Shown here: positions 1,870 to 11,780 of the stretch, in pieces
Layout of the letters: every line of letters starts with the position of its first letter
How positions within the stretch are numbered: position 1 is the first letter of the stretch
From: Planctomycetota bacterium
Lineage (GTDB): Bacteria; Planctomycetota; Phycisphaerae; Sedimentisphaerales; Anaerobacaceae
Length of the DNA: 32,133 nt
Assembly (NCBI GenBank): GCA_012719085.1
Contig: JAAYBA010000092.1
Location: 1-32,133 of the forward strand
Reading direction: 5' to 3'
The notes under the pieces: generated by a model
The model's database searches: none
What the model was told of the DNA's origin: nothing
What the model saw: the letters and a program-made list of their open reading frames with translations, nothing else
Program-made: the position numbers and the translations under genes

Positions 1870-3120
1870 TCATCCTTCGCGGATTTCTCGTTTCTGCGGA
1901 TCGTAGATCGTGCGTTTGCCGGTGTCGAACGAGCGAACGGCCATCAGGCAGGCGATGGCGTGCTGATAGCCGGCGTCGATCGAGGCGTTGGGCGTCTTTC
2001 GCGACCGCAGGCACTGGAGCCAGTCGAGGAAATGGTCCGGCCGGGGCACGTCTTCGACGGGGACCTTGCCGCGAATCTGGCCCCGACGCTTGGCGCCGCC
2101 CTCGGCGCTCAGGACGGGCGCCGTCCACGTCACCATGTCGAGCACGCCTTCGTCGCCGAAGATCTTGAAGCTGTTGCCGCTGCCGTTGCCGAAGTTCGTC
2201 GAGTAGCTGACCATGAACCCTTCGGGATAGATCCACAGGGCCTGCACGTGATCGGGACAGGTGAAGTTGTGCTCGTCCTTATAAGTGAACGTTCCGCCCA
2301 GGCAGACGCAACTCGTCGGGAACGTCGCGCCGGTGATATAATGGACCAGATCGATGAAGTGGCTGCCCAGGCCGGGGACGGGGCCGTCGGAGAAATCGCG
2401 GTAGCCATACCAGCCGGAATACTTCACCGGGTCGAACGCCTGCGCGGGCCGGTCGCCCAGAAATTCCTTCCAGTCCACATCCTCCTTCTTCACGTCCTTG
2501 ACGTACGAGTACCAGTAGGGTCGCTCGGCATTGCGGCACTGCTCGATCCGCCCCACCGTTCCGAGGACCCCGGTCTTGTACAGCTCGCGGCAGCCGGTGA
2601 AACTCGGCAGGCTGCGGAGCTGCGTGCCGATCTGGACCACGACGTTTGCCTTTTTGACGGCGTCGCAGGCCGCCTTGAGCTTGCCGAGATCCATCGCCAG
2701 CGGTTTTTCGCAATAGACGTCCTTGCCCGCCTCGGCCGCCGCTTTCAAATGGGTCGTGTGCATGTGGTCGGGCGAAGCGATCATCACGGCATCCAGATCG
2801 CTCAGGGCGAGCAGGTCGCGATACGATGCAAATTGCTGAGCCGGTCGGCCATACCACTCGTCGGCCAGAGCCGACGCCATCTCCCGGCGCACCCGCCAGG
2901 GATCGGACACCGCCGTGATCTCGATCTTCTGCTCGCCGGCGTGCGCGTGGACGCCCTTCATATGCGCGTTGATACCGCGGTCCCCGCAGCCGATGATCCC
3001 GATGGCGATGCGGTCGTTGGCGCCGACGATGCGAGCGTAGCTTGCCGCCGGAACGGCCAGAGCGGCGCCCCCGGCGATACTGCTCTTGAGGAACGTGCGG
3101 CGAGAGAGAGAATGCTTCAT
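1870..3120 (-). CDS. Gfo/Idh/MocA family oxidoreductase with Tat signal
   Basis: MKHSLSRRTFLKSSIAGGAALAVPAASYARIVGANDRIAIGIIGCGDRG...DAVMIASPDHMHTTHLKAAAEAGKDVYCEKPLA; start trimmed from the ORF's 3171 to the Tat-signal Met. Confidence 0.93.
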   Translation of the reverse strand: MKHSLSRRTFLKSSIAGGAALAVPAASYARIVGANDRIAIGIIGCGDRGINAHMKGVHAHAGEQKIEITAVSDPWRVRREMASALADEWYGRPAQQFASYRDLLALSDLDAVMIASPDHMHTTHLKAAAEAGKDVYCEKPLAMDLGKLKAACDAVKKANVVVQIGTQLRSLPSFTGCRELYKTGVLGTVGRIEQCRNAERPYWYSYVKDVKKEDVDWKEFLGDRPAQAFDPVKYSGWYGYRDFSDGPVPGLGSHFIDLVHYITGATFPTSCVCLGGTFTYKDEHNFTCPDHVQALWIYPEGFMVSYSTNFGNGSGNSFKIFGDEGVLDMVTWTAPVLSAEGGAKRRGQIRGKVPVEDVPRPDHFLDWLQCLRSRKTPNASIDAGYQHAIACLMAVRSFDTGKRTIYDPQKREIREG

Positions 3121-3251
3121 GTTCGTGTCTCCTTCAGGATCTCTATTCGGACTGTCAGGGCAAATGCTCATTCACCTCGACAAACACGACGAATACGAAC
3201 AATCGCGATTATATCCATCTCCGCACAGGGCGACAATCTTCGGCAATCCAT

Positions 3252-3280
3252 TTGACAGCGGGACAGATGGCGAGTATCTC
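3252..3280 (+). promoter_or_regulatory. Candidate sigma70-type promoter for the LacI-family gene
   Basis: TTGACA (3252-3257), 17-bp spacer, TATCTC (3275-3280). Confidence 0.4.
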
Positions 3281-3333
3281 TACGTCTGGATCGGACGTCC
3301 GGTCGGATCCTCCCAACGGGAATCGATGGGCCC

Positions 3334-5545: not shown

Positions 5546-6514
5546 TCAGGCAAACGACAGTCCCAGCCCGCGTCCGACGGAACGGATGTGCTCGGCGGCC
5601 TGTCGGTATTCCTCGGCATTAGGCAGGTGTTCGAGCATCAGCGGCACGCCGGGCAGCTTGCTCAGCTCTCGCAGGAATGTCGCATAATCCAGCTCGCCCT
5701 GCCCCGGACGCACCTCGTCGAGATGGGTCATCAGCTTCGGGTGCAGATAGATGTCTTTGGCGTGGCAGCTCTTGAGATAGGGCCCGAGCTTCTCGAAACA
5801 TTCGACGATCAATTTGCCGTTGGCGTAGTAGCGCTGCGGACTGCACACCAGATTCACCGGGTCCAGATGGGCTGCGAAGCGGTCGCGGTCGATCGCCTGG
5901 ATCAAACGGACGTAGGAATCGGCCGAGTCGGGATAGGCCCACGGCATCGTTTCCAGCGTGAACCACGTCCGCGTGGGCTTGACGTCGTCGATAATCCCCC
6001 GCGTGGTCTCGACGATCATCTCGAACGTCTCTTCCGTGAAGTTCTCGGCCGCCGGGCCGTCCCACTGCGTTCCGCGAGAGCCGGTGATGTTCACGCAGCA
6101 GCGGGCGCCGATCCGGTCGGCCAGGGCCAGTTGCAGGCGGCACTTCTCCAACGCGGCCTTGCGTTTTTCGTCGTCGGGACTGATCGGATTGCTCCAGGCC
6201 CCCACTTCCGCAATGACAATGTCGGCCTTCTGCGCGGCCCGCTCGTAGGCCCGCACCACGTCGTCAGCCACCTCGGCCCCGATGGGACAGTAGGCAGCGC
6301 TGTAGCCCAGCTTCCGGACGGCCTGGGCCCACCCGTCTGGGTCCTGGTACTTGTCGAAGACCGGCCCGCCCAGCCGCAGTTTGTCGTATGCCCGCAGGGG
6401 CGATGCATGCGTCGCCCTACGAACCGGCGATCCCAAATCCAGCGAGGCGACCGCCGCCCCCGCCAGAGACGTCTTCAAGAAACCTCGTCGCGATTGCCTG
6501 TGGCTGCCGTCCAT
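5546..6514 (-). CDS. Sugar phosphate isomerase/epimerase-like TIM-barrel protein with Tat signal
   Basis: MDGSHRQSRRGFLKTSLAGAAVASLDLG then TIM-barrel-like sequence; start trimmed from the ORF's 6661 to the Tat Met. Contains REP-like insertion coding ATHASPL. Confidence 0.85.
   Translation of the reverse strand: MDGSHRQSRRGFLKTSLAGAAVASLDLGSPVRRATHASPLRAYDKLRLGGPVFDKYQDPDGWAQAVRKLGYSAAYCPIGAEVADDVVRAYERAAQKADIVIAEVGAWSNPISPDDEKRKAALEKCRLQLALADRIGARCCVNITGSRGTQWDGPAAENFTEETFEMIVETTRGIIDDVKPTRTWFTLETMPWAYPDSADSYVRLIQAIDRDRFAAHLDPVNLVCSPQRYYANGKLIVECFEKLGPYLKSCHAKDIYLHPKLMTHLDEVRPGQGELDYATFLRELSKLPGVPLMLEHLPNAEEYRQAAEHIRSVGRGLGLSFA
6396..6420 (-). repeat. REP-like palindrome within coding sequence (copy A)
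   Basis: Minus strand GTAGGGCGACGCATGCATCGCCCCTGC; shares the 21-mer GGCGACGCATGCATCGCCCCT with copy B. Confidence 0.7.
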
Positions 6515-6570
6515 CGCTGCTGTCTCCTCAAATGTGTGTGTCGGCCCATAGCCTATGCACAGCACGTGTG

Positions 6571-6595
6571 CGGGCGAATCATCATTCGCCCCTAC
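6571..6595 (-). repeat. GTAG-footed REP-like palindrome, intergenic (copy C)
   Basis: Minus strand GTAGGGGCGAATGATGATTCGCCCG; near-palindromic; identical over 25-26 nt to copy D. Confidence 0.85.
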
Positions 6596-6612
6596 TTTAA
6601 CCCCATGGCGGC

Positions 6613-6658
6613 TTGCCGGCAACCCTTGCCGAGTTCGGTCTTGACGCAGCGGCAAGGG
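6613..6658. promoter_or_regulatory. Operator-like cluster of TTGCCG/CGGCAA motifs
   Basis: Perfect palindrome TTGCCGGCAA (6613-6622) plus inverted repeat CCCTTGCCG (6623-6631) / CGGCAAGGG (6650-6658) overlapping the predicted promoter. Confidence 0.45.
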
Positions 6659-6669
6659 CATGGTATCTT
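6641..6669 (+). promoter_or_regulatory. Candidate sigma70-type promoter for 6871..9699
   Basis: TTGACG (6641-6646), 17-bp spacer, TATCTT (6664-6669). Confidence 0.5.
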
Positions 6670-6795
6670 AATCTACTGTACAGAGCCGGGAACACGTCAT
6701 GCGTCGATGCCCGGAACCTATCCGGCCGACACCATCCCGGCGACAAGAACGCCAAGCCACTGCGTTTTTCGGAGAAGGAAGCCTGCATCATAAGC

Positions 6796-6821
6796 GTAGG
6801 GGCGAATGATGATTCGCCCGC
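6796..6821 (+). repeat. GTAG-footed REP-like palindrome, intergenic (copy D)
   Basis: GTAGGGGCGAATGATGATTCGCCCGC; head-to-head with copy C. Confidence 0.85.
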
Positions 6822-6870
6822 GCAATCCACTCGAATCCGCCACAATCTTGTGAAAAGGAGGGTAGCCAGC

Positions 6871-9699
6871 ATGACTGGAAGACTGATCTGTTCCGCCATC
6901 GTCCTACTGCTGATCGTCGCTGCGTGCGCTCAAGGCGTCTACTTCGAACTGCTGCCGACCTACGACACCTACGTCAGCAACGACCCGACGGAGGGGCCCG
7001 GCACCAGTCACGGCACCGGATCGGGCATGCATGTGCGTGACGTGGCGGACCGGCGCCGCGTGGGGTATCTGACGTACGATCTGACGGAGGCCAGGACGCA
7101 GGGCGCCTTTTTCTCCAACGTGAGCTTCAGCAACTACGGCCACGACACCGGGACGATCCACGTCTACGGGATTCTCGAAAGCCAGGAGGCCCTCGTCGTC
7201 GAAGGCCTGACGTGGAACAATGCACCGGGTGTGATGAACGACCCCACACCGGCGGCGAACTCGCCGGTGGCGCTGGACTTGGCCGATCTGACCGACGTGC
7301 TCCTGACGTTCGCGGCGCCCGCGCGAGGAACGCGAGCGGCAACGGAAACCAGCGAGGCGCTGGCCGATTTTCTCAACAGCGACACCAACGGATTCGTGGC
7401 CTTCCTGTTCGCCCCGGCCGAGGGTGGCAATGCGATCCTTCGGACCGTCGAGCTGGGCGCCGAGGGCGGGACGCTGCTGGTGTTCGAGATCGGCGGCCGC
7501 GCCACGGCGGCCCGCGACCCCGAACCGGAAGACGGCGCAACGGATGTTTATCGTGACGTCGAGCTGAACTGGACGCCCGGAGGGTATGCCGGGGCGCACG
7601 ATGTGTACCTCGGGACCGATTTCGACGACGTCAACGACGCCGATCGCGCCAATCCGAGAGGCGTGCTCGTCGGCCAGGGCCAGGAGGCTGCGACGTACGA
7701 TCCCGGGCGGCTCGAACTCGGGACCACCTACTACTGGCGCATCGACGAGGTCAATGCCACGCCCGATGCGACGATCTTCAAAGGTTTGGTGTGGAGCTTC
7801 ACAACCGAGCCGCCGGCCTATGCCATCGAGAACATCACCGTCACCAGCAACGGGGTCTCCGACGAGGGACTGGGGCCGGAGAACACGATCGACGGCTCCG
7901 GACTCAACGATGACGATCAACATTCGGTCGACCCCATGGCGATGTGGCTGGCCACACCCGACGGCGAGGACCCCATCTGGATTCAGTATGAGTTCGATCG
8001 CGTCTATCAACTGCACGAACTGTGGGTCTGGAACTACAACGTCCTTTTCGAGACGGTGCTCGGTTACGGCCTCAAGGACGTCACGATCGAGGTTTCCACC
8101 GACGGAACGGACTGGACCGTCTTCGGCGATGTCGAATTCGCCAGGGCGACGGCGAAGGTGAATTACGGGCACAACACCACGGTCGATCTCGGCGGCATCG
8201 CCGCCCGATTCGTCCGGCTGACTGTCAACAGCGGCTGGGGGTCGCTGGGGCACTACGGCCTCAGCGAAGTGCGATTCCTCCACATCCCGGCGTTCGCGCG
8301 AGCGCCGCAGCCTGCGGACGGCCAGACCGATGTGTCGCCCGATGCAGCGCTTCGCTGGCGGGCCGGGCGCGACGCCGACCTCCACCAGGTCTATCTCGGC
8401 GCCGATCCGGAGGCCTTGGCCCTGATCGACACGACCGCGCAGGACCGCATCGCACCGGCCGGCCTCGAATTCGGGACCACCTACTACTGGCGAATCGACG
8501 AGGTCAACGAGGCCGAGGCGGTCGCCGTCTGGCAGAGCGATCTGTGGCGCTTCGCCACGCAGGAGTACCAACCGATTGACGGCTTCGAGAGTTATACCGA
8601 CGACATCGACGCCGGCGAGGCGATCTTCGATACATGGCTCGACGGCTGGGTCAACGACACCGGTTCGACCGTCGGCTATCTCGAAGCGCCGTTTGCTGAG
8701 CGAACCATCGTCCGCAGCGGCGCGCAGTCCATGCCGCTGGCCTACGACAACAGCGACTCGCCCTGGTACTCCGAAGCCAAACGGATCTTCGACACGCCGC
8801 AGAACTGGGCGGTCTTCAGCGCTGAGACGCTGGTGGTCTACTTCCAGGGCCGTCCCGGTCCCTTCGTCGAACTGGCCTCGGGCCGCATCGTGATGGGTGC
8901 GGCCGGTGCGGACATCTGGGACGTGGCCGACGAGTTCCGCTTCGGCTACAAGAGTCTGGTCGGCGACGGCTCGATCGTCGCACGCGTCGAGAACCTGACG
9001 AACACGCATGAATGGGCCAAGGCCGGCGTCATGATCCGCCAGACACTGGAGCCCGGCTCGGCGTTTGCGGCGGTGTATCTGACGCCCGGCAGCGGCTGCC
9101 GCTATCAGGGACGTCTGACGACCGGCGCCGCCGCCGTCAGTGACACCGACGTGGCGACCGCCGAGCAGATCGCGATGACGGCGCCTTACTGGATCAAACT
9201 CGAACGCAGCGGCAGCGTCTTCAACGGCTACTATTCGGCCGACGGACAGAATTGGACCGCGATGTCATGGAACCCACAGACGATCGCCATGAACGGTACT
9301 GTCTATATCGGCCTGGCGGTCACCAGCCACAATACGGCGGCGCTGGCCAGTGCGGAGTTCTCAGGCGTCGCCACGACGGGCAACGTCACCGGTCCATGGG
9401 CGGTGCAGACCATCGGTCCCGAGCAGCCAGCGGGCAATTCGCCCGATACGCTCTACGTGGCAGTGGAGGACACCGCCGGAAAGACCGCGGTCGTGACCCA
9501 TCCGGCCGGCGAGGCGGCGACCCTACTGGCCGGCTGGAACCAGTGGCACATCTCCTTCGGCGACCTTGCCGGCGCCAGCCTGGACAGGGTCAAGTCGATG
9601 GCGATCGGCATCGGCGATCGAAGCAACCCCAAGGCCGCGGGCACAGGGTTGATCTACATCGATGATCTGAGTTTCGGAAAGCCGGCCGTCTCCGAGTAG
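6871..9699 (+). CDS. Large secreted multidomain protein (DNRLRE-like N-terminus, discoidin-like, fibronectin-like repeats, DUF1349-like lectin module)
   Basis: RBS aaaaggag then MTGRLICSAIVLLLIVAACAQGVYFELLPTYDTYVSNDP; GTTYYWRIDEVN occurs twice; discoidin-like DPIWIQYEFDRVYQLHELWVWNYN; GYKSLVGDGSIVARVENLTNTHEWAKAGVMIRQTLEPGS. Start trimmed from the ORF's 6613. Confidence 0.85.
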   Translation: MTGRLICSAIVLLLIVAACAQGVYFELLPTYDTYVSNDPTEGPGTSHGTGSGMHVRDVADRRRVGYLTYDLTEARTQGAFFSNVSFSNYGHDTGTIHVYGILESQEALVVEGLTWNNAPGVMNDPTPAANSPVALDLADLTDVLLTFAAPARGTRAATETSEALADFLNSDTNGFVAFLFAPAEGGNAILRTVELGAEGGTLLVFEIGGRATAARDPEPEDGATDVYRDVELNWTPGGYAGAHDVYLGTDFDDVNDADRANPRGVLVGQGQEAATYDPGRLELGTTYYWRIDEVNATPDATIFKGLVWSFTTEPPAYAIENITVTSNGVSDEGLGPENTIDGSGLNDDDQHSVDPMAMWLATPDGEDPIWIQYEFDRVYQLHELWVWNYNVLFETVLGYGLKDVTIEVSTDGTDWTVFGDVEFARATAKVNYGHNTTVDLGGIAARFVRLTVNSGWGSLGHYGLSEVRFLHIPAFARAPQPADGQTDVSPDAALRWRAGRDADLHQVYLGADPEALALIDTTAQDRIAPAGLEFGTTYYWRIDEVNEAEAVAVWQSDLWRFATQEYQPIDGFESYTDDIDAGEAIFDTWLDGWVNDTGSTVGYLEAPFAERTIVRSGAQSMPLAYDNSDSPWYSEAKRIFDTPQNWAVFSAETLVVYFQGRPGPFVELASGRIVMGAAGADIWDVADEFRFGYKSLVGDGSIVARVENLTNTHEWAKAGVMIRQTLEPGSAFAAVYLTPGSGCRYQGRLTTGAAAVSDTDVATAEQIAMTAPYWIKLERSGSVFNGYYSADGQNWTAMSWNPQTIAMNGTVYIGLAVTSHNTAALASAEFSGVATTGNVTGPWAVQTIGPEQPAGNSPDTLYVAVEDTAGKTAVVTHPAGEAATLLAGWNQWHISFGDLAGASLDRVKSMAIGIGDRSNPKAAGTGLIYIDDLSFGKPAVSE

Positions 9700-9733
9700 C
9701 ACAAGCACTCACAACGACACAGTCTATCAGAAT

Positions 9734-9771
9734 GCCTCCATGGTCCGCCGAGCATGTCGGGCCATGGAGGC
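9734..9771 (+). terminator. Hairpin, probable terminator after 6871..9699
   Basis: Perfect 10-bp stem GCCTCCATGG (9734-9743) / CCATGGAGGC (9762-9771), 35 nt after the stop; followed by pyrimidine-rich tccttcctc. Confidence 0.6.
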
Positions 9772-9799
9772 TCCTTCCTCACATTCCCACCCCCCGCGT

Positions 9800-9828
9800 T
9801 TGACGCTTGCCGGGATTCCTGCTACCAT
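9800..9828 (+). promoter_or_regulatory. Candidate sigma70-type promoter for the OLD-like ATPase gene
   Basis: TTGACG (9800-9805), 17-bp spacer, TACCAT (9823-9828). Confidence 0.45.
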
Positions 9829-9902
9829 GTGCGCTTCAGAAACGTGTCATTCAAAGGATTGTACTTGGTCCGCCAGAGGCGGAACGTAGAAGGAAAACGG
9901 AT

Positions 9903-11780
9903 ATGAGACTGCGAACCCTCCAGGTGAAGAATTTCCGCTGCATCGAAGATTCGACCGAATTCACGATCTGTCCGGTCACCTGCCTGGTGGGCAAGAACGG
10001 CGCGGGCAAAACCAGCCTGCTGGAAGCGCTGTACAAGGTGAATCCGGACGTCCGCGAGTTGGGGGCATTCGACGTTCTCATGGAATACCCCCGAGCCCGC
10101 CGTCGTCAGTATCAGAAGTCCGCGGCAGGCGAACCGACCGAGCCGGACGACGCCCTGATCACCACATGGGAACTGGAGGACCACGACGTCGCACGACTGG
10201 AAGAGGTCCTCGGCGCCGGAACGGTCAAGAGCCGTGCCGTCGTGATACGCCAGGGCTACTATCCCGAGCGTCACTGGACCGGAGCGCTGGAGGCGACGCA
10301 TGCATCGCCCCTACAGGCGGCGAATGGCGGACTCGACGCGGCGCCCAAATCCGCAATCCCGAATCCGAACTCTGAAATCGCCCAGATGGACGCGTTTTTC
10401 GAGCGGCATGTGGGGCCCCTGCTGCCCAAACTGCTGTACTTCTCCGAATGGCACATCATGGAGGGCCGCATCTCGATCGACGCCCTGCTGCACCGCAAGC
10501 AAAAAGGCGAATTGTCCGGCCCGGACCGGGTCTTTCTGGCCCTGCTCGAACTGGGCGGCACCAGCGTCGAGGCAATCAGCCGCATCGAACGGTCGGAGGA
10601 ACTCATCGCCGACCTCGAAGACGCCGCCCGTCCCGTGACCGATGAGATCGGCCGCTTCTGGAGCCAGGAGCGCGACCTGAGGGTCAGCTTCCATCTGTAT
10701 CCGGGCCGGCCGCAGGACCCCTCGCCGTTCGATCGCGGCCTGGTCTTCGAGACCCGCATCGTCAATACGAAGACGAATATGTCACTGAACTTCGAGGAGC
10801 GGAGTACCGGGTTCGTCTGGTTCTTCTCGTTTCTGGTTTGGTACTCGGACGTGCGACGACGTTGTGGCGACAACCTGCTGATCGTGCTGGATGATCCGGG
10901 TCTGGGCCTGCACGCCAAAGCCCAGTGGGACCTGATGCGGTATGTCACCGAACGTCTGGCCCCACACTACCAGATCATCTACACGACGCACTCGCCGTTC
11001 ATGATCGATCCCGACCGGATGGCCTGGGTGCGGACGGTCGAGGACCTCTCTGCACAGACCCCGGAAGGCACCACGAGACTGCTCGGCACGAAAGTGGGCG
11101 ACGAGGTCCTCAGCACGGATCATGACACGCTCCTGCCGCTGCAGGCCTCGCTGGGCTATCGGATCATGCAGGACATGGCCGCCGGCAAGCGGCGACTGCT
11201 GGTCGAGAAGCCGGCCGACGTGATCTACCTGAACTGGTTCTCCGCCCGGCTCCACGAGAGCGCGCGGCGTGGACTCGACCCGGCCTGGACCATCGTCCCG
11301 TGCGGTGACCTGGTTCGCCTGGCCACGCTGGTCGGCCTGCTGGCCAACGACCCGCGCGGCTTCGCGGTGCTGTTGAGCCTGTCGGAGCGCGACCCCGATG
11401 TGGTGAACCAGAGGGAACTGTCACGGATGCTCCAGTCGTGCCGGACATTTCCGCTGAGACGGTATGCCCAGCCGGTCACCAGCACGATCGAGGACCTGAT
11501 CGGGTCCCCTGCCTATCCGGCCCTTGTCGACCTGTGCTACAAACTGCCCCGCAAGCAGCGGCTGGCCGCCACGATTGTGAATGCGGACGAAACACCGATT
11601 CTCAGGACCGTCACCGAGCACCTGGGCGACTGCCCGTCGATGACGCAGCCCTTCGATCCGATGCTGCCGGCCGAGTTCCTGCTCTGCATGGGCGGTCGAA
11701 AGGCACGCAAGCTGCCCGGAATCCAGGAGGCCCTGTCCCGGTTCGAGAAGCTGTTTGCCGACCTCAATGCCAGTCTGTAG
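9903..11780 (+). CDS. AAA/OLD-like ATPase with C-terminal Toprim-like region (degenerate)
   Basis: MRLRTLQVKNFRCIEDSTEFTICPVTCLVGKNGAGKTSLLEAL (Walker A), DNLLIVLDDPGLGLHAKAQ (Walker B-like), YQIIYTTHSPFMIDP, RRLLVEKPADVIYL (Toprim-like start). Confidence 0.85.
   Translation: MRLRTLQVKNFRCIEDSTEFTICPVTCLVGKNGAGKTSLLEALYKVNPDVRELGAFDVLMEYPRARRRQYQKSAAGEPTEPDDALITTWELEDHDVARLEEVLGAGTVKSRAVVIRQGYYPERHWTGALEATHASPLQAANGGLDAAPKSAIPNPNSEIAQMDAFFERHVGPLLPKLLYFSEWHIMEGRISIDALLHRKQKGELSGPDRVFLALLELGGTSVEAISRIERSEELIADLEDAARPVTDEIGRFWSQERDLRVSFHLYPGRPQDPSPFDRGLVFETRIVNTKTNMSLNFEERSTGFVWFFSFLVWYSDVRRRCGDNLLIVLDDPGLGLHAKAQWDLMRYVTERLAPHYQIIYTTHSPFMIDPDRMAWVRTVEDLSAQTPEGTTRLLGTKVGDEVLSTDHDTLLPLQASLGYRIMQDMAAGKRRLLVEKPADVIYLNWFSARLHESARRGLDPAWTIVPCGDLVRLATLVGLLANDPRGFAVLLSLSERDPDVVNQRELSRMLQSCRTFPLRRYAQPVTSTIEDLIGSPAYPALVDLCYKLPRKQRLAATIVNADETPILRTVTEHLGDCPSMTQPFDPMLPAEFLLCMGGRKARKLPGIQEALSRFEKLFADLNASL
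10291..10314 (-). repeat. REP-like palindrome within coding sequence (copy B)
   Basis: Plus strand GAGGCGACGCATGCATCGCCCCTAC; minus strand begins GTAGGGGCGATGCATGCGTCGCC; codes for EATHASPLQ in the ATPase. Confidence 0.75.

What the first reader, a model, noticed from the sequence alone, without database searches (positions are those of the whole stretch)
6396..10314. REP-like palindrome inserted inside two unrelated protein-coding genes, both read as ATHASPL
The 21-mer GGCGACGCATGCATCGCCCCT is identical in the sense strand of the Tat TIM-barrel gene (6396-6420, ..SPVRRATHASPLRAYDKL..) and of the OLD-like ATPase gene (10291-10314, ..LEATHASPLQAANGG..). The proteins are unrelated, so this is DNA-level insertion rather than protein homology. 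Both copies end in a GTAG/CTAC foot and on the minus strand both are preceded by GGATTTGGG...CGCC, suggesting a longer composite element. The genes lie on opposite strands, so the element was used in opposite orientations, yet the palindromic core gives the same peptide. The core lacks stops in all six frames. In the TIM-barrel protein it sits in the linker just after the Tat signal, a tolerant site. Rickettsia palindromic elements (RPE) are the established precedent for in-frame palindrome insertions; REP elements mobilised by RAYT transposases carry GTAG feet.
Basis: partly seen in the sequence, partly recalled or inferred. Interest (0 to 1): 0.8.

Follow-up and report, generated by a model that had tools for sequence, protein, structure and literature searches.

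The report
Protein-coding REP-like palindromes across bacterial phyla
A 28-base palindromic repeat has dropped, in frame, into at least nine protein genes of this bacterium (two of them in this window), adding a short peptide such as ATHASPL; it is a new case of the known in-frame REP/Rickettsia-palindrome phenomenon, and the same repeat turns up in many bacterial phyla.

Summary
GGCGACGCATGCATCGCC lies in frame in a Tat-signal TIM-barrel gene and in an OLD-like ATPase gene, and shuffles give none. It belongs to a genome-wide palindrome family, GTAGGGGCGA-N8-TCGCCCC(TAC): 80 copies against 6 in the reversed control, and 67-221 per genome in its genus. Orthologues prove DNA-level insertion: the TIM copy is absent from four of five same-genus genomes; the OLD copy is absent from the closest one, and another genome has a palindrome nearby in a different frame. 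Eight further in-frame copies lie in real proteins (Kbl, CCA-adding enzyme, GntP, pterin methyltransferase and others); seven of the eight have relatives that lack the copy. Exact copies occur across many phyla, several inside conserved domains. The 'longer composite element' is not supported: in the TIM gene its flank is native sequence. RAYT mobilisation is unproven: the genome's RAYT is flanked by a different GTAG palindrome. In-frame GTAG REPs and Rickettsia RPEs are published (PMC3733652, PMC10969869). This is a large new example of a known kind, notable for cross-phylum spread and repeated hits at the same protein sites.

The parts
6391..6419 (-). In-frame palindrome copy 1 (gene-sense TCGTAGGGCGACGCATGCATCGCCCCTGCGG), read ATHASPL at residues 34-40 of the Tat TIM-barrel protein
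   Evidence: Exact match. Net 21-nt gain in the alignment with G005, G001, G002 and G003; present in G004 as AMHASPL.
5546..6514 (-). Host gene 1: Tat-signal AP_endonuc_2 TIM-barrel protein; likely start ATG at 6514 after AGGAG rather than the longest ORF start at 6661
   Evidence: Pfam PF01261 3.5e-24, TAT_signal; orthologues align from there.
10288..10314 (+). In-frame palindrome copy 2 (GGAGGCGACGCATGCATCGCCCCTAC), read ATHASPL in the OLD-like ATPase
   Evidence: Exact match. Absent in G004 (91.5% identical protein). G005 carries a palindrome nearby in another frame, DHTGDACVAPTT.
9903..11780 (+). Host gene 2: OLD-like AAA ATPase (ORF opens at 9807; first internal ATG at 9903)
   Evidence: Pfam AAA_15 1e-21, AAA_21 2e-13; the linker varies in length between orthologues.
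10346..10380 (+). Adjacent separate repeat: AATCC-type heptamer array coding KSAIPNPNSEI, also in G004
   Evidence: genus-wide pattern AATCCSNAATCCSNAATCC, 0 in reversed control.
6572..6595 (+). Extragenic family member GGGCGAATCATCATTCGCCCCTAC upstream of the TIM gene
6796..6819 (-). Extragenic family member (GTAGGGGCGAATGATGATTCGCCC on the + strand), upstream of the F5/8C gene, inverted mate of 6572-6595
   Evidence: Inverted repeat I2, 97% complementary.

Best explanation
The palindrome is a 28-bp, GTAG-tagged, REP-like non-autonomous mobile element (GTAGGGGCGA-N8-TCGCCCC, often with CTAC at the far end). Copies land all over the genome. Those inside genes survive only when the element, together with the loss of some target bases, keeps the frame, and when the added 4-8 residues fall in a loop, linker or domain boundary. 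Because the element is palindromic it gives the same peptide in either orientation. One frame is shut by the TAG of the foot and another is shut in AT-rich variants, so survivors mostly read [V]GAxxxSP[L] (ATHASPL here), less often RG[DE]xxxAP[T]. Shown here: repeat family, insertion sites with relatives lacking the copy, in-frame survival, repeated use of the same sites, an apparent in-frame internal deletion in one relative, and cross-phylum distribution. Inferred: movement through a hairpin ssDNA intermediate by a HUH (RAYT-type) enzyme acting in trans, and near-neutrality of the added peptides.
For: Family: 80 against 6 in control in this genome, 67-221 copies in genus mates. Foot: 42 of 53 copies carry an exact GTAG on at least one side, 36 of them on exactly one side (one-sided tag, Fisher p=0.012). 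Insertions: relatives lacking the palindrome for TIM, OLD, GntP, pterin methyltransferase, FAD oxidoreductase, L154 protein, Kbl, MinD/ferredoxin protein and CCA-adding enzyme. Length differences from relatives lacking the copy are multiples of 3 (12-24 nt), less than the 28-bp unit, and I saw no target duplication. The Kbl insert falls at an alignment gap against PDB 3tqx. Turnover: the G004 CCA gene shows a 30-nt in-frame internal deletion relative to G005. Recurrence: OLD copies in two frames in G000 and G005; methyltransferase copy in G000, G004 and G002 but not in G001, G003 or outgroup G029, although flanks and tree place G002 with G003. Cross-phylum: exact 28-mers in at least 116 stretches over many phyla; in-frame ORF copies read VGAxxxSPL or RG[DE]xxxAPT, including inside HypD, HemD, RibD_C, Maf and Hydant_A_C domains.
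Against: No transposase gene carrying this palindrome at its flanks was found in the genus or in 116 cross-phylum loci, so the mobiliser is unknown. Draft MAGs break at repeats, so a linked gene could be missed. Cross-phylum copies could be convergent, given the short palindromic consensus, rather than one spreading family. Expression and tolerance of the peptides are not shown.
Confidence: 0.82

Rival explanations
1. A classic REP/RAYT system: the single RAYT of this genome mobilises this palindrome as well as its own flanking GTAGGGTGTGC palindrome, because both carry the GTAG foot. (This is a rival about the enzyme; it is compatible with the best explanation.)
For: A bona fide RAYT is present; both families share the GTAG tag; a one-sided tag is the GTAG-REP hallmark (PMC3733652).
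Against: The RAYT is flanked by at least five copies of the other family and none of this one. PMC3733652 describes repeat-specific REPtrons. G001, with the most copies (221), has only one Y1 hit, without the palindrome nearby.
Confidence: 0.35
2. No transposase: copies are templated by replication slippage or template switching, with microhomology-guided conversion writing the palindrome over target bases.
For: Length gains are 12-24 nt rather than 28, so target bases are replaced; same-site reuse across species; a G029 sequence without the insert already resembles the element at the MinD site.
Against: One resemblance in a GC-rich genome is weak; intact GTAG feet at many unrelated sites argue for a defined unit.
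Confidence: 0.2
3. Chance or protein-level convergence: two unrelated genes happen to encode ATHASPL.
For: None found.
Against: Zero matches in shuffles, 80 genomic copies, orthologues lacking the segment.
Confidence: 0.01

Closest known systems
Intragenic GTAG-tagged REPs (Di Nocera et al. 2013, PMC3733652)
   Same: 20-40 bp palindrome with GTAG at one end, mostly extragenic, some copies entirely inside ORFs; reported in several phyla including PVC (Opitutus terrae has the most intragenic GTAG copies).
   Different: Sometimes a fully symmetric 28-mer with CTAC at the other end; no REPtron found for it. The figure of 24 consensus sequences is not held, so I cannot say whether one of them is this family.
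Rickettsia palindromic elements (RPE)
   Same: Palindromes inserted in frame in unrelated protein genes, giving related peptides, with relatives lacking the copy.
   Different: RPEs are described as about 150 bp (PMC10969869), and RPE-4/6 as CGTC-tagged REPs (PMC3733652). This element is 28 bp, GTAG-tagged, and found in many phyla.
REPIN/RAYT (REPtron) systems
   Same: Same GTAG foot; a RAYT is present in the genome.
   Different: That RAYT's flanking palindromes are a different family (GTAGGGTGTGC), which often occurs as inverted pairs about 46 nt apart, as in REPINs.

Membership tests
GTAG-tagged REP | 20-40 bp palindromic unit in tens to hundreds of copies | tested here: met
   80 copies, control 6; 67-221 in genus mates.
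GTAG-tagged REP | GTAG tetranucleotide at one end | tested here: met
   42 of 53 have an exact GTAG on at least one side, 36 on exactly one side; Fisher p=0.012 against independent feet.
REPtron (REP with its own linked RAYT) | RAYT gene flanked by the same repeat | tested here: not met
   No Y1 gene examined in g1/G029 nor in 116 cross-phylum loci is flanked by it; own RAYT is flanked by another family. Not required of every GTAG REP: PMC3733652 notes that REPtrons are missing in some species.
GTAG-tagged REP | Consensus identical to one of the 24 published GTAG families | not testable with these tools
   Consensus sequences are in a figure that is not held.
Rickettsia palindromic element (RPE) | In-frame insertion in unrelated protein genes with relatives lacking the copy | tested here: met
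   Nine genes.
Rickettsia palindromic element (RPE) | ~150-bp unit or CGTC end tag, Rickettsia host | tested here: not met
   GTAG tag, 28-bp unit, different hosts. Works like an RPE; is not one.

The most novel reading that the evidence does not exclude
One GTAGGGGCGA palindrome family, without a linked transposase, has spread over much of the bacterial domain and acts as a general source of short VGAxxxSPL / RGDxxxAPT insertions in conserved enzymes, with preferred protein sites that are re-hit independently in sister species.
Probability: 0.35. Interest if true: 0.75.

Novelty: new member of a known kind. Interest (0 to 1): 0.55.

Why it matters
It gives a clean set of natural in-frame insertions of graded age (species-specific to genus-wide) in well-understood enzymes such as Kbl, CCA-adding enzyme and a pterin methyltransferase. 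It lets one ask how proteins take up selfish DNA, and which enzyme moves a GTAG palindrome that has no RAYT beside it. It also warns annotators that VGAxxxSPL-like segments in unrelated proteins may be mobile DNA, not motifs.

Tried and rejected
Composite longer element: rejected, because the TIM flank is native in G001/G005. RAYT neighbour of this palindrome: looked for around 20 Y1 loci of the genus and G029 and in 116 cross-phylum loci; none found (the query set was only 3 proteins, so one search used a motif scan instead). Literature search for the exact DNA or peptide strings: the listed matches are unrelated papers. PMC4666352 (intrastrand triplex repeats) was looked into and is unrelated. 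Copy L131 looks like native coding sequence and was not counted; L124 is in frame but all three relatives checked carry it, so no empty site was seen. A bulk hairpin listing was spoilt by a masked N run. An automatic codon-bias score missed the TIM copy, because the N-terminal region scores low, so the count of in-frame copies is a lower bound. Whether any copies disrupt genes out of frame was not checked.

Full report
What is in the window. GGCGACGCATGCATCGCC occurs in frame in a Tat-signal TIM-barrel gene (minus strand, host gene 5546-6514) and in an OLD-like AAA ATPase gene (plus strand, to 11780), both read ATHASPL. Shuffled windows give no match even with three mismatches. Two more members, at 6572 and 6800, lie in the divergent region between the TIM and F5/8C genes.

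It is a repeat family. The genome (4.5 Mb MAG, 658 contigs) holds 80 GGGCGA-N(4-16)-TCGCCC sites against 6 for the reversed pattern, and ten with the GCATGC core. Same-genus genomes hold 67-221; most other genera few; G029, of another genus, holds 110. Fifty-three copies with flanks give the consensus GTAGGGGCGA-N8-TCGCCCC with cores GGCATGCC, ATCATGAT, CGCATGCG and relatives. An exact GTAG stands on at least one side in 42, on exactly one side in 36 and on both in 6.

The insertions are real. Five same-genus relatives carry both genes. In the TIM gene the segment is present in G004 (AMHASPL) and missing, with a 21-nt gap in the alignment, in G005, G001, G002 and G003. In the OLD gene it is missing in G004; G005 has a full palindrome at nearly the same place in another frame (DHTGDACVAPTT).

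It is general. A codon-bias scan of the copies found further in-frame ones, confirmed by orthologue comparison and in most cases by domain matches: GntP permease (GANDHSP), MTHFR/pterin methyltransferase fusion (GANHDSP, next to the conserved INS segment), an FAD oxidoreductase linker (GARHASP), the unassigned L154 protein (RANHDSP), Kbl (GATHASP; an alignment gap against PDB 3tqx), a MinD/ferredoxin protein (GANDDSP) and the CCA-adding enzyme (RGDACVA). An eighth, in L124, is shared by the relatives checked. With the two window genes that makes ten in-frame copies, nine with at least one relative lacking the palindrome. Length differences are 12-24 nt, always a multiple of three and less than the 28-bp unit, so target bases seem to be lost on insertion; no duplication was seen.

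Turnover and same-site reuse. In the CCA gene G004 shows a 30-nt in-frame internal deletion relative to G005, and G002 has an AATCCGC-type insert at the same place. In the methyltransferase the copy is in G000, G004 and G002, is overwritten by other palindromes in G005, and is absent in G001, G003 and G029; protein and local DNA trees put G002 with G003. In the species tree G004 and G005 are sisters, so the TIM pattern (present in G000 and G004, absent in G005) also needs a loss or a second gain. Independent insertion at one spot, clean loss, or very short-tract exchange between species is needed; I cannot separate these.

Beyond the genus. ORFs crossing them read VGAxxxSPL or RG[DE]xxxAPT; the third frame is closed by the TAG of the foot. 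Several lie within conserved domains: HypD (cyanobacterium), HemD (Nitrospirae), RibD_C (Bipolaricaulota), Maf (Anaerolineae), Hydant_A_C (Chloroflexi). Empty sites were not checked for these, and many of the other ORFs in that list may be spurious.

Mobiliser. The genome has one RAYT (NF047646, 189 bits), ringed by GTAGGGTGTGC-N3-GCACACC palindromes, a second family that often forms inverted pairs. A G003 Y1 gene is ringed by a third family, GTAGGTCGAGCG and variants. No Y1 gene was found beside GTAGGGGCGA palindromes. So the enzyme is unknown; action in trans by a RAYT is an inference.

Known context. GTAG REPs inside ORFs, including in PVC bacteria, and RPE insertions in Rickettsia genes are published. 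The present case is a new and widely spread member of that kind. The genus is unnamed here; a planctomycete is my guess from gene content only.

Noticed in passing
L122 (G000:C361) 1599-2912: A REPtron: RAYT gene (191 aa, NF047646) surrounded by at least five GTAGGGTGTGC-N3-GCACACC palindromes; the family has 27 exact copies in the genome, often as inverted pairs about 46 nt apart.
   Followed up: partly
L109 (G003:C230) 2292-3282: A Y1 transposase hit in a same-genus genome surrounded by a third GTAG palindrome family (GTAGGTCGAGCGTCCCCGCTCGA and variants).
   Followed up: no
window 10346-10380; genus-wide: A seven-base-period repeat (AATCCGC/AATCCGA) occurs in the genus with none in the reversed control; in the OLD gene it codes KSAIPNPNSEI next to the palindrome, and a similar insert (NPRSAARNPQ) sits in the G002 CCA-adding enzyme at the same site as the palindrome in G000.
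   Followed up: partly
L165 (G005 methyltransferase orthologue): The palindrome site is overwritten by further GTAGGGGCA-type palindromes, giving an in-frame insert 42 nt longer than that of G000 (GATPRGCPAQPGQAQGPAP).
   Followed up: no
L053 (G004), upstream of the TIM gene: The upstream REP copy carries an inserted TCCGCCTCTGGCGGA palindrome, a possible further repeat family.
   Followed up: no
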